NCBI GenBank assembly: GCA_023954035.1
Contig: JAMLIT010000027.1
Location: 1-50,202, forward strand
Origin: Burkholderiaceae bacterium
Lineage (GTDB): Bacteria; Pseudomonadota; Gammaproteobacteria; Burkholderiales; Burkholderiaceae_C
Length of the DNA stretch: 50,202 nucleotides
Direction: 5' to 3'
Shown: positions 14,595 through 48,649 of the stretch, piece after piece
Position numbering within the stretch: the first letter of the stretch is position 1
How the letters are laid out: every line of letters begins with the position of its first letter
Notes under the pieces: generated by a model
Seen by the model: the letters and a program-made list of their open reading frames with translations, nothing else
What the model was told of the DNA's origin: nothing
Databases searched by the model: none
Program-made: the position numbers and the translations under genes

Positions 14595-15860
14595 TCAATG
14601 CCCCACGTGGCACTCGCGCCGCAGCAGCGCCAGTGCGTCGCCCAGACTGACATCGCGGTCGTCTTCCAGCGTAGCGCGGGCCTCGGCCACAAAGCTGCGC
14701 CACAACGCCAGGAAATCGGCGCTATGCATTTCGGGAGCATGCTCGGCGATGAAGGTTTCGGCATGGCCAGGCTCCCAGCCCTTGGTGCGGAGCTTTCGCA
14801 CCAAGGCCTTGGCGGCTTTTTCTGGCAGCAGGGTTTTCTTCGGCACACCCACGGCCAGGCAGAGGAACAGCGTGAGCAGCGCGGCTTCATCGTTCTCGCC
14901 CTGCGTGGTGCGCTGCCATGTCTTGCTGGCCGCTGCCGGCGGCGCGTCGTCTTCATTCAGCGGCGCTGCGGCGCGCAGGTATTCGTCCACCTCGTCCAGC
15001 GGGTCTTCCAGCAGGAAATAGCGATTGCGCAGCGCGCTCATGGTCCGCAGCAGCGTACCCAGGGGGCGCCTGGGGTCAAGCAGCTTGCCCAGGTCGGCCA
15101 ACACCACCGGCTTTTGCGCGTCGACCACCGCCTGCAAGGGGGGCGGCAGCCCTTTGGGCGATGGCAGGGTCGACACGCCGGCCAGCGCCTTGCCGGCGCT
15201 GCGCCGCGCGCCGAGCAATTTGCGGAACGCCGCGACGCTGGGCCACTCGGCGCCGCGGTAGCCCAGAGTCTGCAGAACCAGCGCCGTGCGAATCACGCCT
15301 TCGGCATCGCCTTCTTCAAGCGCTTCATCCTCCAGCGCATGGCGCTCGGCCAACCACAACGCGGCCTGCACGGCTTGGCCGATGCGGCTGCGCCGCTCCA
15401 ATTCCTCGCGGTACTGCGCGTAGCTGCGCAGAGACCACAGCGCCAGCAGCGACACCTGCGCTTCATCCTGGCCCTGCATGCCAAAGTGGCTGCTCTCGGG
15501 CAGGGCGATCAGCTGGCGCAGCAAATCGGTGCCGGCCTTGGAGCGCGAGAGCAGCGAATGGTCGGCCAGCAGGCGCGCGGCCGCTGCCAGGTCGCCGGCC
15601 GTCTCATGCTCCAGGTGCAAGCTGATGAAGTTGACCATGCGCTCGCGTGCACGCTCAAGCTCGGGGCGCAGGAATTCGCTGCCAAAGTAGCGCGCAATCT
15701 GCACCATGCCCTTGGCGGCCTCCAGGTGCATGGCGACCAGACGCTCGGTGCCGATGATGCCGTGCTGCACGCCGTAGACCAGCGCCTTTTCAAAGAGCGG
15801 CCGGGCATCGTGCAGCGCCACCGCCTGGGCTGGCTCGCCCGCCTTGCTGCTGCCGGGCAT
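14595..15860 (-). CDS. Unassigned 421-residue protein, gene 4 of J-domain operon
   Basis: I do not recognise this protein. It is mostly helical, without signal peptide or membrane segments. Helical-repeat-like blocks occur at about 20-120 (PLFEKALVYGVQHGIIG, RLVAMHLEAAKGMVQIARYFG, AAAARLLADHSLLSRSK) and a second alpha-rich half at 290-421. Its ATG shares one base with the TGA of the preceding gene, so it is translationally coupled. Convergent with the cysteine hydrolase gene 31 bases away. Being coupled behind a J-domain protein suggests a role in an Hsp70-linked process, which is inference only. Confidence 0.8.
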   Translation of the reverse strand: MPGSSKAGEPAQAVALHDARPLFEKALVYGVQHGIIGTERLVAMHLEAAKGMVQIARYFGSEFLRPELERARERMVNFISLHLEHETAGDLAAAARLLADHSLLSRSKAGTDLLRQLIALPESSHFGMQGQDEAQVSLLALWSLRSYAQYREELERRSRIGQAVQAALWLAERHALEDEALEEGDAEGVIRTALVLQTLGYRGAEWPSVAAFRKLLGARRSAGKALAGVSTLPSPKGLPPPLQAVVDAQKPVVLADLGKLLDPRRPLGTLLRTMSALRNRYFLLEDPLDEVDEYLRAAAPLNEDDAPPAAASKTWQRTTQGENDEAALLTLFLCLAVGVPKKTLLPEKAAKALVRKLRTKGWEPGHAETFIAEHAPEMHSADFLALWRSFVAEARATLEDDRDVSLGDALALLRRECHVGH

Positions 15861-40973: not shown

Positions 40974-41882
40974 ATGAATCCGACCACGCCCTTGCCCACA
41001 GTCCACACCGGCCACGCAGGCCACTACGACAGCGTCTTTCGTTCCGGCCTGTTTGCAGGCCGCACCCTCTGGGTCACGGGCGGCGGCAGCGGCATTGGCC
41101 GCTGCACCGCACACGAGCTGGCCTCGCTGGGCGCGCGCGTCGTCATCAGCGGGCGCACCGCCGAAAAACTGGACCGTGTCGCCCAGGAAATCCGCGAGGA
41201 CGGCGGCCTGTGCGAGACCATTGCCTTCGACATCCGCGACGAAGACGCCGTGAAGGTCGCCGTGGCCAGCACGGTGGCGCGCCTGGGGCCTGTTCATGGC
41301 CTGGTCAACAACGCAGGCGGCCAGTTCCCGGCGCCGCTGCAGGCCATCAGCAAGCGCGGCTTCGAAGCGGTGGTCAGCAATAACCTTACCGGCGGCTTTT
41401 TGATGATGCGCGAAGTGTTTCTGCAAAGCATGCAGGAGCATGGCGGCGCAATCGTCAACATGACGGCCGACTTTCGCAACGGCATGCCGGGCATGGCCCA
41501 CTCGGGCGCTGCGCGCTCGGGCATGAGCAACCTGACCATGAGCGCGGCTTTTGAGTGGGCCAGCAGCGGCGTGCGTGTCAACGCGGTGGCCCCGGGCTGG
41601 GTGGCCTCCTCCGGCATGGACAGCTACGGGGGCGCTGTGAAAGCCCTGATCCCGAAGCTGCGCGAACACGTACCGCTGCGCCGCCTGGCAACCGAGGCAG
41701 AAATCAGCGCCGCCATCGTCTTCCTGCTCAGCCCCGGCGCCGCCTTCATCACCGGCATCACGCTGCAGATCGACGGCGCCGCCTCACTGGGTGCACCGCT
41801 TTTCCCCATCATGGAACACCAGCGGTCGCAGCCCTTTGAAGGCTTTCACCGCGCAAAGGCGCCGGAGGTGCTCAAGCCATGA
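40974..41882 (+). CDS. Short-chain dehydrogenase/reductase heading the carboxylase operon
   Basis: A 302-residue SDR with NAD(P) motif WVTGGGSGIGRCTAHELASLGA, NNAG in GLVNNAGGQ and a family-typical AIVNMTADF. The usual YxxxK is changed: the position reads AHSGAARSG, as in the peroxisomal 2,4-dienoyl-CoA reductase branch, so the standard Tyr is absent. Gene order parallels atuB/atuG, the SDRs of the Pseudomonas citronellol pathway. The ribosome site is weak. Its stop overlaps the next ATG by 4 bases. Confidence 0.87.
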   Translation: MNPTTPLPTVHTGHAGHYDSVFRSGLFAGRTLWVTGGGSGIGRCTAHELASLGARVVISGRTAEKLDRVAQEIREDGGLCETIAFDIRDEDAVKVAVASTVARLGPVHGLVNNAGGQFPAPLQAISKRGFEAVVSNNLTGGFLMMREVFLQSMQEHGGAIVNMTADFRNGMPGMAHSGAARSGMSNLTMSAAFEWASSGVRVNAVAPGWVASSGMDSYGGAVKALIPKLREHVPLRRLATEAEISAAIVFLLSPGAAFITGITLQIDGAASLGAPLFPIMEHQRSQPFEGFHRAKAPEVLKP

Positions 41883-43501
41883 CTGCGATCCGTTCGATGA
41901 TCGACGCGAACAGCGACGCCTTTCGCCGCAATGCCGAACGCATGGCCGAGCGTCTGGCCCTGGTGCAAGGCCTGCAGGGCAAGGTGGTGGCCGAGTCGGC
42001 CTCGAAACGCGAAAAATTCGAAAAAAAGGGCCAACTGCTTCCGCGTGAGCGCGTGGCCCGCCTGCTCGACCGGGGCAGCAGCTTCCTGGAACTCTCGGCC
42101 CTGGCGGGGCTGGGCATGCACGACGACGACGGCAAGAAGGCCGTGCTGGGTGGCGGCTCCATCGTCGGCATCGGCCAGGTGGCGGGCAAGCGCGTGCTGA
42201 TTTCCGCCAGCGACAGCGCCGTCAAGGGCGGCACCGTGGCGCCCATGGGCCTCAAGAAGGGGCTGCGTGCCCAGGCGATTGCACTGCAGAACAAGCTGCC
42301 GCTGATTGCGCTGGTCGAATCGGGCGGCGCCAACCTGATGTACCAGGCCGACATTTTTGTCGATGGCGGGCGCAGCTTTGCCAACCAGGCACGCTTGTCA
42401 GCCGCCGGTATTCCGCAAATTGCCGTGGTGCACGGGTCATCGACGGCCGGCGGCGCCTACCTGCCCGGCCTGTCCGACTATGTGGTGCTGGTGAAAGACC
42501 GCTCCAGCATCTACCTGGCGGGCCCGCCCCTGGTGAAGGCCGCCATTGGCGAAGACACCACCGACGAGGAACTGGGCGGCAGCGACCTGCACGCCAGCGT
42601 GACCGGCCTGGGCGAATACCTGGCCGAGAACGATGCCCACGCCATCGCCCTGGCACGCGATCTGATGGACCACCTGCCCTGGGACGAAGCAGGCGGCCCG
42701 AATACCACTGCGCGCGCGCCGCTGTACGACGCTGCCGAACTGATGGGCATTGTGCCTGCCGACGAACGTGAACCGTACGACGCCCGCGAGATCATTGCCC
42801 GCATCGTCGATGGCTCGCACTTTCTGGAATTCAAGGCCAGCTTCGACCGCGACACCCTGTGCGGCCATGCCCGCATCGACGGCCACCGCGTGGGCATCAT
42901 CGCCAACAACGGCCCGATCCAGCCCACGGGTTCGGTGAAGGCCGCGCAGTTCATCCAGCTGTGCGACCAGAGCGGCACGCCGCTGGTGTTTTTGCAGAAC
43001 ACCACGGGCTACATGGTGGGCACGGCGGCCGAGCGGGCGGGTGCCATCAAGCACGGCAGCAAGATGATCCAGGCCGTGGCGAATGCGCGGGTACCCAAAT
43101 TCACCATCGTGGTCGGCGGCTCGTTTGGTGCCGGCAACTACGGCATGTGCGGGCGCGGGTTTGATCCGGACTTCATCTTCACCTGGCCTACCGCGCGCAC
43201 TGCCGTCATGGGCGGCGCGCAGGCGGCCATGGTCATGGAAATGATCAGCCGCGGCAAGTTGGAGCGCGCTGGCGTGCCGATGAACGAGCAGGCCGAGGCC
43301 GGTATCCAGGCCATGAGCGACCAGCTCAGGCGGCGCCTGGATGCCGAGTCGGACGTGCTGTTCGGCACCGCCCGCCTGTGGGACGACGGAATCATCGACC
43401 CGCGCGACACCCGCAGCGTGCTGGCGCAATGCCTGGCCATGGCGCACGACGCCCGCGCGCGCGCGCTGCGCCCCAACACCTTTGGCGTGGCGCGCTTCTA
43501 A
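41879..43501 (+). CDS. Acyl-CoA carboxylase beta (carboxyltransferase) subunit, methylcrotonyl/geranyl-CoA type
   Basis: A 540-residue carboxyltransferase moving CO2 from carboxybiotin to an alpha,beta-unsaturated acyl-CoA. N-half: KLPLIALVESGGANL, SSTAGGAYLPGLSDYVVLV, IYLAGPPLVKAAIGE. C-half: FLQNTTGYMVGTAAERAGAIKHGSKM, VGGSFGAGNYGMCGRGFDP and MGGAQAAMVM. Where methylcrotonyl-CoA carboxylase has a longer insertion ending in FFNQ, this protein reads GGRSFANQ, which I take, with gene order, as favouring a geranyl-CoA or other long-chain substrate. It works with the biotin subunit at 45777. Confidence 0.9.
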   Translation: MTAIRSMIDANSDAFRRNAERMAERLALVQGLQGKVVAESASKREKFEKKGQLLPRERVARLLDRGSSFLELSALAGLGMHDDDGKKAVLGGGSIVGIGQVAGKRVLISASDSAVKGGTVAPMGLKKGLRAQAIALQNKLPLIALVESGGANLMYQADIFVDGGRSFANQARLSAAGIPQIAVVHGSSTAGGAYLPGLSDYVVLVKDRSSIYLAGPPLVKAAIGEDTTDEELGGSDLHASVTGLGEYLAENDAHAIALARDLMDHLPWDEAGGPNTTARAPLYDAAELMGIVPADEREPYDAREIIARIVDGSHFLEFKASFDRDTLCGHARIDGHRVGIIANNGPIQPTGSVKAAQFIQLCDQSGTPLVFLQNTTGYMVGTAAERAGAIKHGSKMIQAVANARVPKFTIVVGGSFGAGNYGMCGRGFDPDFIFTWPTARTAVMGGAQAAMVMEMISRGKLERAGVPMNEQAEAGIQAMSDQLRRRLDAESDVLFGTARLWDDGIIDPRDTRSVLAQCLAMAHDARARALRPNTFGVARF

Positions 43502-43540
43502 GCCCATCGCGCTCCCACAATTTTTTCTGGAGAGAACCCC

Positions 43541-44695
43541 ATGCAATTCACCCCCGAGCACGAGCAGATTGCCGACACCGTGCGCAAGTTTGTCGCCAAC
43601 GAGATCAACCCCTTCACGGCCGAATGGGAAAAGGCCGGCATCTTCCCCGCACGCGCGCTCTTCAAGAAGATGGGCGACCTGGGCCTGCTGGGCATCAAGT
43701 ACCCCACCGAATTTGGCGGCATGGGGCTGGACTTCAGCTACTCCATGGTGATGGCCGAGGCCCTGGGCGATTGCAACGTGGGCGGCGTGCCCATGGCCAT
43801 TGGCGTGCAGACGGACATGTGCACCCCGGCGCTGGCGCGCTTTGGCTCGGACGAGCTGCGCAAGGAGTTTCTGGCCCCCGCCATTGCCGGTGACATGGTG
43901 GGCTGCATCGGCGTGAGCGAGGTCACCGGCGGCTCGGACGTGGCAGCGCTCAAGACCACGGCGCGCAAGGACGGTGGCGACTATGTCATCAATGGCTCCA
44001 AGATGTGGATCACCAACGGCATGCAGGCCGACTGGTGCTGCCTGCTGGCCAACACCTCGGACGGCCCGGTGCACAAGAACAAGTCGCTCATCATGGTGCC
44101 CATGGATGCGCCCGGCATCACACGCCAGAAGATCGAGAAGATCGGCATGCATTCGAGCGACACGGCACAGCTGTTCTTTGACAACGTGCGCGTACCCCAG
44201 CGCAACCTCATTGGACAGGAAGGCGCGGGCTTCATGTTCCAGATGCTGCAGTTCCAGGAAGAGCGCCTGTACGGCGCCGCCAGCAGTCTGCGTTCACTCG
44301 ACAACCTCATCAACCTGACCATCGAATACACCCGCCAGCGGCACACCTTTGGCCAGCCCATCCTGAACAACCAGGTGGTGCATTTCCGTCTGGCCGAGCT
44401 GCGCACCGAGGTGGAGTGCCTGCGCGCGCTGACCTACCGTGCGGTGGAATCCTACGTGGCGGGCAAGGACGTCACCAAACTCGCCTCCATGGCCAAGCTC
44501 AAGGCCGGGCGTCTCTCGCGCGAAGTCACCGACAGCTGCCTGCAGTACTGGGGCGGCATGGGTTTTACGGCCGACAACCCCATCTCGCAGGCCTACCGCG
44601 ACAGCCGACTCATCTCCATCGGCGGCGGTGCCGACGAGATCATGCTGGGCATCATCTGCAAGCTCGAAGGCACCTTACCTGGCAAGCAGCGCTGA
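43541..44695 (+). CDS. Acyl-CoA dehydrogenase (AtuD/isovaleryl-type)
   Basis: A 384-residue FAD acyl-CoA dehydrogenase. FAD and substrate motifs: GCIGVSEVTGGSDVAALKT, GSKMWITNGMQA, RQRHTFGQPI and LQYWGGMGFTADNP. The usual Glu of medium-chain enzymes (near YxxExP) is Asp here, while Glu241 in FQEERLYGAA aligns with the alternative base of isovaleryl-CoA dehydrogenase. So it likely oxidises branched CoA esters such as citronellyl- or isovaleryl-CoA. A GGAGAG site precedes the ATG; it lies 39 bases after the carboxyltransferase gene. Confidence 0.92.
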   Translation: MQFTPEHEQIADTVRKFVANEINPFTAEWEKAGIFPARALFKKMGDLGLLGIKYPTEFGGMGLDFSYSMVMAEALGDCNVGGVPMAIGVQTDMCTPALARFGSDELRKEFLAPAIAGDMVGCIGVSEVTGGSDVAALKTTARKDGGDYVINGSKMWITNGMQADWCCLLANTSDGPVHKNKSLIMVPMDAPGITRQKIEKIGMHSSDTAQLFFDNVRVPQRNLIGQEGAGFMFQMLQFQEERLYGAASSLRSLDNLINLTIEYTRQRHTFGQPILNNQVVHFRLAELRTEVECLRALTYRAVESYVAGKDVTKLASMAKLKAGRLSREVTDSCLQYWGGMGFTADNPISQAYRDSRLISIGGGADEIMLGIICKLEGTLPGKQR

Positions 44696-44708
44696 ACGGT
44701 AGATTGCT

Positions 44709-45527
44709 ATGAATTTTGAAGCTATCACCGCAATCACCACGGGCGCGGTGCTCGAAATAACCCTCAATCGCCCCGAGGTGCGCAACGCCATGTCTTTGGC
44801 CATGGTGGGTGAGTTGCGCCAAGCGCTTGCGCAGGCCGAAAGCACGGCGGGCAGCGCACAGGCCATCCGCGTGGTGGTGCTGCGCGGTGCGGGCGGGCAT
44901 TTCTGCGCCGGGGGCGACCTCAAGGACATGGCAGCGGCCCGCATGCGCGCCGTGCAGAACGCGGGCGACGCTGCCGATCCCATTGCCCATGTGAACGCCG
45001 AATTTGGCCACCTCTGCGCGGCGTTTGCCAACACCCCGCTGGCCGTGGTGGTGGTGCTGGAGGGCACGGTGATGGGCGGCGGCTTTGGGCTGGCCTGTGT
45101 GGCCGATGTGGCGATTGCCACTGAGACCGCCCGCTTCCGACTGCCCGAAACGTCGCTCGGCGTGGTGCCCGCGCAGATTGCACCTTTTCTCGTCGAACGG
45201 CTGGGCTACTCGCAGGCCAAGCGCCTGGCCGTGACCGGCGGGCGGCTCGATGCGACCGAGGCTTTGGCCGTGGGCCTGGTGCACCAGCAGGTGGCGACAG
45301 GCGAAGTGGATGCCGCAGTGCAAGCCGTGCTGGCCGACATCCTGGCCTGCGCGCCCGGGGCCCTGGCAGCCACCAAGGCGCTGATGGCCAAGGCCCGCTG
45401 GAGCGCTCCCGCCGATTTGGTGAACGAAGCCGCCGCCATCTTCTCGCGCGCCGTGCAGGGCCCCGAGGGCCAGGAAGGTACGAGCGCATTTCTGCAGAAA
45501 CGCAAACCAAACTGGGTTCCGGCATGA
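44709..45527 (+). CDS. Enoyl-CoA hydratase (glutaconyl-CoA type, AtuE/LiuC-like)
   Basis: A 272-residue crotonase. Oxyanion-hole segments: GHFCAGGDLKDMAAARM and LEGTVMGGGFGLACVADVAIA; then FRLPETSLGVVPAQIAPFL with the conserved LPE, the pattern of methylglutaconyl- and isohexenylglutaconyl-CoA hydratases. It would hydrate the carboxylase product. The stop overlaps, as ATGA, the original start of the biotin carboxylase gene at 45524. Confidence 0.9.
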   Translation: MNFEAITAITTGAVLEITLNRPEVRNAMSLAMVGELRQALAQAESTAGSAQAIRVVVLRGAGGHFCAGGDLKDMAAARMRAVQNAGDAADPIAHVNAEFGHLCAAFANTPLAVVVVLEGTVMGGGFGLACVADVAIATETARFRLPETSLGVVPAQIAPFLVERLGYSQAKRLAVTGGRLDATEALAVGLVHQQVATGEVDAAVQAVLADILACAPGALAATKALMAKARWSAPADLVNEAAAIFSRAVQGPEGQEGTSAFLQKRKPNWVPA

Positions 45528-45655
45528 GTTTTTCCAAAATACTGATTGCAAACCGGGGTGACCAGCCGCACAGCGGCGCAGCGGCGAAGCCACATTGCCT
45601 GGTGCGCGCAGCGCACGCAGGCGGTTTTTCCGCGATAGGGGCACAGCATGTTTAA
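45524..45655 (+). CDS. Leader ORF 1: original biotin-carboxylase start, interrupted
   Basis: ATG 45524 overlaps the hydratase stop (ATGA) and opens MSFSKILIANRG, the expected first residues of a biotin carboxylase. After codon 11 the sequence leaves the family and runs as DQPHSGAAAKPHCL... to TAA at 45653-45655, 43 codons in all. Its end overlaps the next ATG (45648) by 8 bases. I read it as the native gene start, cut by insertion of a repeat unit. Confidence 0.65.
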   Translation: MSFSKILIANRGDQPHSGAAAKPHCLVRAAHAGGFSAIGAQHV

Positions 45656-45677
45656 GAAGATCCTCATTGCGAATCGC
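45557..45677 (+). repeat. Insertion unit copy 1 at the biotin carboxylase start
   Basis: 121 bases: GGTGACCAGCCGC, two CAGCGGCG microrepeats, AAGCCACATT, a hairpin GCCTG-GTGCGC-GCA-GCGCAC-g-CAGGC (45597-45622), GATAGGGGCAC, then ATG plus ten codons (MFKKILIANR). The right end thus restores the start of the gene it cuts. It has three or four base differences from copy 2 outside the microrepeat. Confidence 0.75.
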
Positions 45678-45767
45678 GGTGACCAGCCGCGCAGCGGCGC
45701 AGCGGCGCAGCGGCGAAGCCACATTGCCTGGTGCGCGCAGCGCACACAGGCGGTTTCTCCGCGATAG
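45648..45767 (+). CDS. Leader ORF 2: second rebuilt start, interrupted again
   Basis: ATG 45648 opens MFKKILIANRG, then DQPRSGAAAQRRSHIA... and stops at TAG 45765-45767, 39 codons. An AGGGG site precedes the ATG and another overlaps its stop, ready for the real gene at 45777. Probably translated as a short leader that hands ribosomes on. Confidence 0.55.
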   Translation: MFKKILIANRGDQPRSGAAAQRRSHIAWCAQRTQAVSPR

Positions 45768-45806
45768 GGGCACGACATGTTTAAGAAGATCCTCATTGCG
45801 AATCGC
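45678..45806 (+). repeat. Insertion unit copy 2 at the biotin carboxylase start
   Basis: 129 bases, same plan as copy 1 but with three CAGCGGCG microrepeats instead of two, which accounts for the 8-base difference. Hairpin at 45726-45751. It ends with ATG plus ten codons whose bases are identical to those at the end of copy 1 and different from the native start at 45524. Confidence 0.75.
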
Positions 45807-47774
45807 GGAGAAATCGCCTGCCGGGTCATCCGCACAGCCCGCGCACTCGGCTACCGCACCGTCGCCGTGTATTCCGACGCCGATGCCCAGGCCCCCCACG
45901 TAGCGCTGGCCGATGAGGCCGTGCGCATCGGCCCGGCGCCAGCGGCCGAGTCCTACCTGAAATTCGACGCCATCCTCGGCGCCTGCCGGGCTACGGGTGC
46001 CGATGCGCTGCACCCCGGTTATGGCTTTCTGAGCGAAAACGCCGCCTTTGCGCAGGCGTGTTCTGACGCCGGGGTGCTGTTCATCGGCCCGCCCCCCTCG
46101 GCGATTGAAGCCATGGGCGACAAGGCCCTGGCCAAGCAACGCATGATCGAGGCCGGTGTGCCCTGCGCGCCAGGCTACCTGGGCCAGGACCAGAGCGATG
46201 CCACGCTGGTCGCAGAGGCCCAGAAGCTGGGCTACCCCTTGCTGGTCAAGGCCGTGGCAGGCGGCGGCGGGCGCGGTATGCGCCTGGTGCGCCAAGAGGG
46301 CGAGCTGCAAGCCGGTATTGAAGGCGCCCGGCGCGAAGCCACCAGCGCATTTGGCGACGGCACGCTGATGCTCGAACGCCTGATTGAAGGCGGCCGCCAC
46401 ATCGAAATCCAGGTCTTTGCCGACGCGCACGGCAACGCCGTGCACCTGGGCGAGCGTGACTGCACTGCGCAGCGCCGCCGCCAGAAAGTGATCGAGGAAG
46501 CGCCCTCCCCCATCGTCTCGCCGCAGATGCGCGCGCAGATGGGCGCAGACGCCGTGGCTGCCGCCCTGGCCGTGGGCTACCGGGGTGCGGGCACGGTGGA
46601 GTTCATCGTGGACAGCGAGAACCGCCACTACTTTCTGGAAATGAACACCCGCCTGCAGGTGGAGCACCCGGTGACCGAATGCATCACCGGCCTGGATCTG
46701 GTGGAGTGGCAGCTGCGCGTGGCCGCGGGCGAGCCCCTGCCGCTGCAGCAGCAGGACATTCAACTGAGCGGCCACGCGATTGAGGTACGACTCTACGCCG
46801 AGGACCCCTACAACGACTTTGCGCCACAGACCGGCCCGGTGCAGTTCTGGCGCCCAGAGCTGGCCCTGACAGGCCGCGCGCGGGGGCAATGTGCTTTTGG
46901 CGAGGTACGCATCGACGCGGGCATCCAGGAGGGTGGCGAGATCACCCCTTGGTACGACCCCATGGTGGCCAAGCTGATCGCCCACGGCCGCGACCGCAGT
47001 GACGCCATCCGCCGCCTGATGGCCGCGCTGGAAGACAGCCCGCTGCTGGGGGTGCAGAGCAACGCGCGCTTTCTGCGCGACCTGCTGGACCACCCCCAGT
47101 TCCGCGCAGCGCGCATGCACACCGCCACCATCGACCAGTGGATGCAGGACGGCGAGCCACTGCTGCAAGCGCCACAAGCAGATGCCGCTACCTGGGCCCT
47201 GGCCGCCGCAGCACTGGCAGCACAAACGTCGGGCGCCTTCCGGCCGGGCAGCGTGGCCGCCTGGAGCACCACGCTGAGCCTGCAAGGCACGGCAGAAAGC
47301 CAGGCCGTACGCATCCGCCCCCACGGCACGCAGGTGACCGTGGAACTGGCCGGTGGCGAAGCCTTCGACTTTGAGCACATCGCCTTGCAAGACCACTGCC
47401 TGCACTACCGCCAGCGTGGCATGCAGCGGCGGGCTCTGTGTTTGCTACAAGATGGCCGGGTGACGCTGACAGCAGGCGCTGCGGTGTTTGTCTTTGAAGA
47501 AAAGTCGCCCTTTCCGCAGACCGATCAGGCCCTCGACCCGCGCAAATTGCGCTCCCCCGTGGCGGGCACCGTCTGCGCCATCTCCGTCGCCGTGGGCGAC
47601 CAGATCAAGGCAGGCCAGCCCCTGCTTTGCGTAGAGGCCATGAAGATGGAAATGTGGCTCAGCGCCCGGGCGGACGGCACCGTCACCGCCCTGCACACCA
47701 CGCTCAAAGACAGCGTGGCTGCAGGCAGCGTGCTGGCAGAACTTGAACTCACCAACGAAGAGACCACGCCATGA
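45777..47774 (+). CDS. Acyl-CoA carboxylase alpha subunit (biotin carboxylase + biotin carrier)
   Basis: A 665-residue protein. Biotin carboxylase domain 1-450: ILIANRGEIACRVIRTARALG, HPGYGFLSENAAFA, ATP-grasp glycine loop KAVAGGGGRGMRL, RDCTAQRRRQKVIEEAPSP and FLEMNTRLQVEHPVTE. Biotin carrier at the C-terminus: RSPVAGTVCAI and VEAMKMEM with the biotinyl Lys. It carboxylates its own biotin and serves the beta subunit at 41879. The start is ATG 45777 with AGGGG six bases upstream; both are supplied by insertion unit 2. Stop overlaps the BKACE start (ATGA). Confidence 0.95.
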   Translation: MFKKILIANRGEIACRVIRTARALGYRTVAVYSDADAQAPHVALADEAVRIGPAPAAESYLKFDAILGACRATGADALHPGYGFLSENAAFAQACSDAGVLFIGPPPSAIEAMGDKALAKQRMIEAGVPCAPGYLGQDQSDATLVAEAQKLGYPLLVKAVAGGGGRGMRLVRQEGELQAGIEGARREATSAFGDGTLMLERLIEGGRHIEIQVFADAHGNAVHLGERDCTAQRRRQKVIEEAPSPIVSPQMRAQMGADAVAAALAVGYRGAGTVEFIVDSENRHYFLEMNTRLQVEHPVTECITGLDLVEWQLRVAAGEPLPLQQQDIQLSGHAIEVRLYAEDPYNDFAPQTGPVQFWRPELALTGRARGQCAFGEVRIDAGIQEGGEITPWYDPMVAKLIAHGRDRSDAIRRLMAALEDSPLLGVQSNARFLRDLLDHPQFRAARMHTATIDQWMQDGEPLLQAPQADAATWALAAAALAAQTSGAFRPGSVAAWSTTLSLQGTAESQAVRIRPHGTQVTVELAGGEAFDFEHIALQDHCLHYRQRGMQRRALCLLQDGRVTLTAGAAVFVFEEKSPFPQTDQALDPRKLRSPVAGTVCAISVAVGDQIKAGQPLLCVEAMKMEMWLSARADGTVTALHTTLKDSVAAGSVLAELELTNEETTP

Positions 47775-48649
47775 GCAACAACAAAGCCATCCTGACCTGC
47801 GCCCTCACCGGCGTGCTGACCAATCCCCAGCAGCACCCTGTTCCCGTCACGCCCGAGCAGATGGCCGCGCAGGCGCGCCAGGCGTTCGATGCCGGTGCGT
47901 CCATCATGCATGTGCACATCCGCTCCCAGCAGGAAGGCATGGGCCACATGCCCAGCTGGGACCCGGATGTGGCGCAGGAAGTGGTGGACGCCATCCGCCA
48001 GGCCTGCCCCGGCGTCATCATCAACCTGACCACGGGCGTCATCGGCAAGGACATCAGCGGGCCGCTCGACTGCATCCGCCGCGTGCGCCCCGAGATTGCC
48101 GCCTGCAACGCCGGCAGCCTGAACTACCTCAAGCTCAAGGAAGACGGCAGCTGGGCCTGGCCGCCCATGGTGTTCGACAACCCGGTGGCCAAGGTGCAGC
48201 AGTTCCTCGACGTGATGCAGGAATGCGGCACGCACCCCGAGTTCGAGTGCTTCGACGTGGGCATCGTGCGCTCGACCACCATGTACATCAAGAACGGCAT
48301 GCTCAAACCCGAGATGGGGCGCCCCGAATACAACCTGGTGATGGGCGTGGCCTCGGGCATGCCCTGCGATGCGCGGCTACTGGAGCTGCTGCCCGAGTGG
48401 ATGGCCCCCGGCGCCGTGTGGCAGGCCACGCTGATCGGCCGCCAGGAGATCTGGCCCGTGCACCAGAAAACCGCCGACCTGGGCGGCATGCTGCGCACGG
48501 GCCTTGAAGACACGTTCTACCTGCCGGACGGCGGCCGCGCCAGCGGCAACGGCCCGCTGATCGAAGCCTTGGCGCAATGCGCGCGCAATGCGGGCCGCGA
48601 TATCGCCTCGCCCGCCGAGGCACGGCAGATGCTGGGGCTGAAGGCCTGA
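47771..48649 (+). CDS. BKACE-family enzyme (beta-keto acid cleavage, DUF849)
   Basis: A 292-residue TIM-barrel protein of the 3-keto-5-aminohexanoate cleavage family. Zn ligands are in SIMHVHIRSQ; further marks are INLTTGVIGKD, CNAGSLNYLK, FECFDVGIVRSTTMYI and a late GGMLRTGLEDTFYLPDG. Members condense a beta-keto acid with acetyl-CoA to give acetoacetate and a new CoA ester. It stands where liu clusters carry HMG-CoA lyase. Joined to the alpha subunit gene by a 4-base overlap. Confidence 0.9.
   Translation: MSNNKAILTCALTGVLTNPQQHPVPVTPEQMAAQARQAFDAGASIMHVHIRSQQEGMGHMPSWDPDVAQEVVDAIRQACPGVIINLTTGVIGKDISGPLDCIRRVRPEIAACNAGSLNYLKLKEDGSWAWPPMVFDNPVAKVQQFLDVMQECGTHPEFECFDVGIVRSTTMYIKNGMLKPEMGRPEYNLVMGVASGMPCDARLLELLPEWMAPGAVWQATLIGRQEIWPVHQKTADLGGMLRTGLEDTFYLPDGGRASGNGPLIEALAQCARNAGRDIASPAEARQMLGLKA

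What the first reader, a model, noticed from the sequence alone, without database searches (positions are those of the whole stretch)
45524..45806. Tandem insertion unit that cuts and rebuilds the 5' end of a biotin carboxylase gene
Seen directly: the start ...ILIANRG of the gene occurs three times, at ATG 45524, 45648 and 45777. Between them lie two copies of a 91/99-base unit with a strong hairpin, an AGGGG site and variable CAGCGGCG microrepeats (2 versus 3). The first start (MSFSKILIANRG) overlaps the hydratase stop and is coded by quite different bases from the other two (MFKKILIANRG), which are identical to each other. So this is not a simple tandem duplication of the native start. The unit seems to carry its own replacement start, entering at the conserved ANRG codons and restoring the reading frame. 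I know of no named element of this kind. It could be a small non-autonomous mobile element, or a scar of recombination with another biotin carboxylase gene.
Basis: partly seen in the sequence, partly recalled or inferred. Interest (0 to 1): 0.85.

Follow-up and report, generated by a model that had tools for sequence, protein, structure and literature searches.

The report
Hairpin leader cassette in carboxylase genes
Many betaproteobacteria carry, inside the first codons of some biotin carboxylase genes, a short hairpin-forming cassette that turns the old start into a tiny leader gene and supplies a new start whose translation appears tied to that leader; my searches found no published description of it.

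Summary
The triple start is real: ATG 45524, 45648, 45777, with two units between. It is not a local oddity. In the window's genus the same gene has no unit (3 genomes), one (7) or two (2). Related units sit at the same codon of other biotin carboxylase (BC) genes: 73 of 250 family genomes, and 101 of 119 pattern stretches in named genomes, mostly betaproteobacteria.

A typical unit has four features. (1) The old start opens a leader ORF of about 40 codons. (2) In 124 of 144 distinct units the starts lie 3n+1 bases apart; in 115 of 144 the leader stops on a codon overlapping the new start. (3) Three hairpins show compensatory changes. (4) A helix of about 18 bp pairs the unit with the gene's own NRGEIA codons and follows their synonymous changes. 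Best reading: a translationally coupled leader cassette, changed in copy number and perhaps moved by recombination. The unit-core patterns I ran found it only at BC genes, so it is not a dispersed repeat. What the coupling is for is unknown. Rfam and nine literature searches gave nothing like it. The window's second unit is atypical (leader stops 12 nt before the start).

The parts
45524..45559 (+). copy 1: native start MSFSKILIANRG, now the start of leader ORF 1
   Evidence: aligns with the start of the unit-free orthologues in G003, G009, G012
45524..45655 (+). leader ORF 1 (43 codons plus TAA); its stop 45653-45655 overlaps the second ATG
   Evidence: no Pfam match
45560..45647 (+). unit 1 (88 nt): hairpins, arm, AGGGG and junction to the second start
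   Evidence: 121.4 bits to model R1 (not reported separately, where it overlaps the unit 2 match)
45602..45616 (+). hairpin P3 of unit 1 (GTGCGC-GCA-GCGCAC)
   Evidence: sequence; the helix shows compensatory changes across relatives
45618..45636 (+). P4 5' arm of unit 1
   Evidence: sequence, placed one 129-nt period before the unit 2 arm; one more position off Watson-Crick pairing than unit 2
45648..45680 (+). copy 2: start MFKKILIANRG
45648..45767 (+). leader ORF 2 (39 codons plus TAG); ends 12 nt before the third ATG, frame changed by the extra 8-nt repeat
   Evidence: no Pfam match
45681..45776 (+). unit 2 (96 nt)
   Evidence: 131.5 bits to R1, 142.2
45731..45745 (+). hairpin P3 of unit 2
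   Evidence: sequence
45747..45765 (+). P4 5' arm of unit 2
   Evidence: inverted repeat I1, 95% complementary
45802..45820 (+). P4 3' arm: codons of the BC gene itself
45777..47774 (+). biotin carboxylase / acyl-CoA carboxylase alpha subunit, 665 aa
   Evidence: Biotin_carb_N at residues 1-110, Biotin_carb_C, Biotin_lipoyl

Best explanation
The unit is a translationally coupled leader cassette of biotin carboxylase genes. Ribosomes start at the old start (copy 1) and translate a leader of about 40 codons through the hairpins. They unwind helix P4, which pairs the unit with the gene's own NRGEIA codons around the new ribosome-binding site and start. They end on a stop codon that overlaps or nearly touches the new start, and restart there to make the full enzyme. 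Shown by sequence: architecture, compensatory changes, frame and stop conservation, presence and absence among relatives, tandem copies. Inferred: that the leader is translated, that P4 closes the start without it, and that the copied start lets recombination add, remove or transfer units. The peptide itself is probably not the point, since its sequence and even its reading frame over the hairpins differ between lineages. Whether the coupling senses something or only fixes enzyme dosage is open.
For: P1-P4 on 28 seed sequences: 94.2% of cells paired; 15 of 32 pairs change on both sides; 85 such cells against 19.6 in shuffles and 5-14 when slid. On 103 model matches: 471 such cells against 115.5 shuffled and 26-65 slid (that alignment is fitted to the structure). 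Arm against gene: in the 123 of 144 units where at least 13 of 20 bases are complementary, the freely varying GGN third base is Watson-Crick paired in 108. Where copies 1 and 2 differ there, the arm suits copy 2 in 52, copy 1 in 6, neither in 4 (the arm was located by its fit to copy 2, a mild bias). Frame: 124 of 144 are 3n+1, 69 of 86 at 85% non-redundancy. 142 of 144 leaders stop within -23..+8 of the start; unit shuffles that keep length give a mean of 79 (maximum 100), and the other two frames give 13 and 12. Among the 124, copy 1 TTC with copy 2 TTT (which makes the overlapping stop) 47 times, the reverse once; non-redundant 32 against 0. All 7 tandem arrays measured have 3n+1 periods; the window's array does not. 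Empty, single and double sites in one genus. Coupling with structure around the downstream start is an established mechanism (PMC12548453, passages).
Against: No expression, ribosome profiling or RNA probing data. The window's second unit breaks the rule (spacing 129, stop at -12), and its two P4 arms compete for one partner. 20 of 144 units are not 3n+1; two read in frame into the enzyme. Of the 20 weak family matches that I fetched, 16 have a copy 1; only 6 of those 16 are 3n+1 throughout, though their leaders still stop close to a start; 4 of 20 show no copy 1 and no typical unit. A diverged unit on another BC gene of the same genome lacks the arm and the overlapping stop. Structure just after a stop can reduce restart (PMC7518266, passages), so P4 might insulate rather than couple. 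Rows are related, so counts are not independent events.
Confidence: 0.73

Rival explanations
1. A gene-interrupting, near-neutral or selfish cassette: it enters BC genes at NRG|E and stays harmless because it brings its own stop/start junction, so the gene is restarted rather than broken. Regulation is not its purpose.
For: Copy 1 looks like the cut native start: MSFSK or MNFTK in copy 1 against MFKK or MFNK in copy 2. Copy 1 decays mildly in some lineages (ITNRG, IAHCG, IMIANRR). Patchy presence: 73 of 250 family genomes, roughly 18 of 182 BC genes in 50 genomes. Filled and empty orthologues at two different BC genes. Both AccC-length and longer BC genes are hit.
Against: No copies away from BC genes in the patterns run. 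Compensatory changes in P1-P3 speak for lasting selection on the structure. The two units of G239 were nearer to units of other genomes than to each other.
Confidence: 0.3
2. A ligand-binding riboswitch-like leader that controls BC translation.
For: Several covarying helices before a defined gene family.
Against: P1 and P2 vary in length and sequence and P2 can be missing; no Rfam match. Two alternative pairings were tested: AAATTGC with the P4 arm shows one compensatory cell, and copy 1 with the P4 arm is disfavoured.
Confidence: 0.1
3. Plain local tandem duplication of the gene start.
For: The two-unit state most simply arose separately in the window's genome and in G006 (tree and copy numbers).
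Against: The first start differs from the others and unit-free relatives lack the unit sequence at this site; the unit occurs at many other BC genes. It explains copy number two, not the unit.
Confidence: 0.03
4. Transposon-like repeat (MITE, REP or palindromic coding element).
For: Short, hairpin-rich, present or absent; GNA triloops in 103 of 133 stems found near the unit's end.
Against: One codon of one gene family in the patterns run; in the own genome only short partial matches elsewhere (five inspected, none near a BC start); the arm follows the host gene's synonymous codons.
Confidence: 0.05

Closest known systems
Translational coupling by termination-reinitiation or RNA unfolding (review PMC12548453, passages; PMC6728339, search listing)
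   Same: Upstream ORF ending on or near the downstream start; structure around the downstream start
   Different: Upstream ORF is a short leader that begins with a copy of the enzyme's own N-terminus; the closing helix uses the enzyme's own codons; the cassette is optional and can be tandem
Leader-peptide translational attenuators such as ermBL/ermB (PMC8274638, search listing only)
   Same: Short leader ORF that controls the downstream gene
   Different: No conserved stall peptide seen here: leader peptides differ in sequence and frame between lineages
Conserved uORF of ilvBNC in Corynebacterium (PMC10272879, search listing only)
   Same: A conserved region before a metabolic gene, found in a search for structured RNAs, that proved to be a uORF
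   Different: Other gene, other lineage; a copied start is not mentioned in what I saw
Rickettsia palindromic elements and bypass elements of mitochondria (recalled; listings)
   Same: Short elements tolerated inside coding genes
   Different: Here one gene family and one codon, and the gene is restarted rather than read through or bypassed

Membership tests
Translationally coupled leader ORF | short ORF whose stop overlaps or closely precedes the main start | tested here: met
   142 of 144 leaders stop within -23..+8 of the main ATG; in the window leader 1 stops on the second start and leader 2 at -12 of the third
Translationally coupled leader ORF | conserved structure around the main start | tested here: met
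   P4, 18 pairs, 93.7% and 91.0% of cells paired, compensatory changes
Translationally coupled leader ORF | main translation depends on leader translation | not testable with these tools
   needs reporters
Transposon-like repeat (MITE/REP/palindromic element) | copies dispersed at unrelated loci | tested here: not met
   limited to the patterns and genomes searched
Transposon-like repeat (MITE/REP/palindromic element) | terminal inverted repeats plus target-site duplication | tested here: inconclusive
   the copied start resembles a 33-36 bp duplication, but in the window's gene the two copies differ; the inverted repeat has one arm in the host gene
Riboswitch | match to a known family | tested here: not met
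   no hit at gathering threshold in 9 loci; two hits far below gathering score in the window
Riboswitch | ligand binding | not testable with these tools
   needs in-line probing
Intron, intein or bypass element | interrupted reading frame joined across the insert | tested here: inconclusive
   the main ORF is complete from its own start and the frames differ by +1 in 124 of 144, so joining is not needed; hopping is not testable

The most novel reading that the evidence does not exclude
A new kind of gene-interrupting element, a 'restart cassette': it enters one conserved codon of biotin carboxylase genes, may find that site by complementarity of its arm to the gene's codons, and keeps the gene alive by turning the severed 5' end into a leader ORF that terminates on the cassette's own start codon. 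It would be another solution, beside splicing and bypassing, to living inside a needed gene.
Probability: 0.28. Interest if true: 0.88.

Novelty: new variant of a known kind. Interest (0 to 1): 0.73.

Why it matters
Biotin carboxylases start fatty acid synthesis and feed propionate and branched-chain acid breakdown (general knowledge). A structured leader with a built-in termination-restart junction, present in about three in ten family genomes sampled and not found in print in my nine searches, would give a large natural experiment on translational coupling: filled, empty, tandem, frame-shifted and fused versions of one gene family.

Tried and rejected
Rfam: nothing. A decoy switch in which the P4 arm pairs with copy 1: disfavoured (52 against 6). 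Alternative stem AAATTGC/GGCGATTT: one-sided changes, one pair broken in 12 of 28. Conserved peptide function: disfavoured, since the same core is read in other frames in some lineages. The class-wide model search (369 genomes) gave strong hits only in the window's genome, with G153 (same family) at 43 bits and the other genomes under 36. It scored 8 candidates per genome (12), so I draw no absence from it and counts are lower bounds. In one search, 64 of 299 genomes matched, but in 7 of these the only match covers just the BC start, so I count units. My pattern forced codon 3 of copy 2 to NAN and copy 1 to AACCGNGG; I therefore claim nothing about codon 3, nor about copy 1 conservation, from that set. 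18 of its 119 matches failed a first test for a duplicate start: 3 differ in one residue, 2 were cut off at a contig end, 13 show none. The arm regular expression failed and was replaced. Dropped rows: 39 of 183 with exactly repeated sequence. In one search three loci were aligned in the wrong direction; their single units are shown.

Full report
Observation. The units are 88 and 96 nt between start copies, the start-to-start distances are 124 and 129, and the repeat is 94% identical. The gene is a biotin carboxylase with a biotinyl domain, 665 aa. It lies in an operon-like run: a carboxyltransferase-like protein, an acyl-CoA dehydrogenase, a crotonase, BC and a protein related to 3-keto-5-aminohexanoate cleavage enzyme.

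Presence and absence. Of 26 genomes of the genus, 12 gave the orthologous locus. G003, G009 and G012 have the plain start with no unit. G025, G018, G002, G011, G008, G020 and G021 have one unit; the window and G006 have two. On an unrooted tree of flanking gene sequence the window groups with one-unit G025, and both stand beside the three empty genomes; G006 lies among one-unit genomes. The two-unit state most simply arose twice. Presence changed at least twice if the node joining window and G025 to G012 holds (support 0.69), otherwise at least once. Between window and empty genomes, identity is 0.84 and 0.60 in the first two 15-nt bins after NRG and 0.98-1.00 in the next three. This hints at the end of a recombination tract, though empty genomes also vary in the second bin (0.76). 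Related units stand at other BC genes of the genus in six genomes (L018, L019, L021, L032, L033, L034). The window's own genome has an empty counterpart of the L018 site (contig C7; flanking sequence alike by eye) and a diverged unit on a third BC gene (contig C15).

Spread. Thirty loci from a query without copy 1 all carry a BC-like start before the unit: 19 fit my block pattern; in the other 11 the copy has small changes, a different following codon or, once, a frameshift, and in one of these the outermost copy is cut by the contig end. A covariance model found 73 of 250 family genomes, 52 of 141 genera, at 47.4 to 164.3 bits. I fetched 20 weak matches: 16 have a copy 1 and a leader; 4 do not, but their genomes have other matches, so the 73 stands. 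The 50 family genomes searched with PF00289 hold 182 BC domains; by coordinates about 18 of these genes carry units. The printed lists were cut, so this is approximate. Titles were printed for 80 stretches, 65 of them among the 101: by my reading 60 name betaproteobacterial groups (Hydrogenophilus counted), 2 gammaproteobacteria (Marinobacterium, an Oceanospirillales genome) and 3 only 'proteobacteria'. The alphaproteobacterial, acidobacterial and Stenotrophomonas stretches among the printed titles were not duplicates. Of 70 unit-bearing genes with a readable end, 40 are 600-800 aa with EIAC, 27 AccC-length with EIAL, 3 other. Four of four EIAL proteins tested pass the NCBIfam accC cut-off; the two EIAC proteins tested do not.

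Leader. From copy 1, 115 of 144 distinct units read to a stop overlapping the new start, 4 stop one codon later, 23 stop from 23 nt before to 1 nt after its first base, and 2 read through in frame. Unit shuffles that keep length reach the -23..+8 zone in a mean of 79 of 144 (maximum 100), the exact overlap in a mean of 63 (maximum 82); the other two reading frames reach the zone in 13 and 12. Among the 124 units with 3n+1 spacing, copy 1 has TTC and the new start TTT, which creates the stop, in 47; the opposite occurs once; 63 have TTT in both and 8 TTC in both. In the non-redundant set it is 32 against 0. Among the 16 weak matches with a copy 1, only 6 are 3n+1 throughout, but the leaders still end from 18 nt before to 5 nt after a start; in one of them (L281) the first leader passes through a middle start and ends at the main one.

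Structure. Helices P1-P4 show compensatory change far above both controls. P4 joins the unit to the gene's own codons. One pair at a third codon position reads GC 41, AU 27, UA 15, CG 7, GU 1, unpaired 12 of 103. The arm suits the copy that begins the enzyme, not copy 1. The outer P4 pairs switch together in a way that fits EIAC and EIAL codons (examples, pairs); I did not tabulate this by gene type.

Reading. A leader ORF that ends on the main start, beside a helix that spans that start, is the anatomy of translational coupling (PMC12548453, passages). Against a simple version, structure just after a stop can suppress restart (PMC7518266, passages). Copy 1 is best seen as the severed native start: in the window's gene it keeps the native kind of start while copies 2 and 3 are MFKK. 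Similarity of the two copies within a locus exceeds that between loci (28.9 against 26.7 of 33; 0 of 5000 permutations), as expected from duplication or conversion. Tandem arrays of two or three units and seamless empty sites fit recombination between copied starts.

What is known. Searches and 69 of an open-access library gave no description of this leader in the listings; most subscription papers are not covered. I call it a new variant of translational coupling, and leave the gene-interrupting 'restart cassette' as the bold reading.

Noticed in passing
L242 (window genome contig C15, 53800-55900, minus strand): Another BC gene (MFTKILIANRGEIACRVIATAKK) with a longer, diverged unit: copy 1 MFTKILIANRS, AAATTGCGTG and a GCCCGC-GCA-GCGGGC hairpin, leader ending in TAAGGAG before the start, without the P4 arm.
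   Followed up: partly
L108 and L119: Leader in frame with the enzyme and without a stop, predicting an N-terminally extended BC with two ILIANRG motifs.
   Followed up: no
L107, L152, L243: Three tandem units with identical periods (121, 118, 136), each 3n+1.
   Followed up: partly
hairpins near the 3' end of the units: Triloops are GCA, GAA or GTA in 103 of 133 stems found in 144 units. I recall that such GNA loops are unusually stable in single-stranded DNA, which might point to a DNA-level role.
   Followed up: no
L117, L142, L179, L186: New starts where the usual overlapping stop is missing; the leader stops one codon later, at +8.
   Followed up: partly
L091, L110, L135, L150, L168: The conserved core is read in another frame, yet the spacing class and the final overlapping stop are kept.
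   Followed up: partly
L282, L283, L289, L290, L291, L296: Weak model matches form a separate-looking class with leaders beginning MKKVLIANRGEN or similar, spacing 134 or 137.
   Followed up: no
L286, L287: BC starts without copy 1 but with an arm-like GGCGATCGAGCC or similar just before the ribosome-binding site; possible relics or precursors of the unit.
   Followed up: no
L004, L006, L007 (window genome contig C1): Three copies, about 920 bases apart, of a short stretch that matches query bases 33-59 of the unit on the minus strand at 88-89%; no BC start near.
   Followed up: partly
window 15178-15259, minus strand: Weak model match (23.1 bits, GC 0.79), probably chance.
   Followed up: no
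window 41879-48649: Carboxyltransferase, acyl-CoA dehydrogenase, crotonase, BC and a keto-acid-cleavage-like protein in one run; the substrate of this carboxylase operon is not obvious.
   Followed up: no
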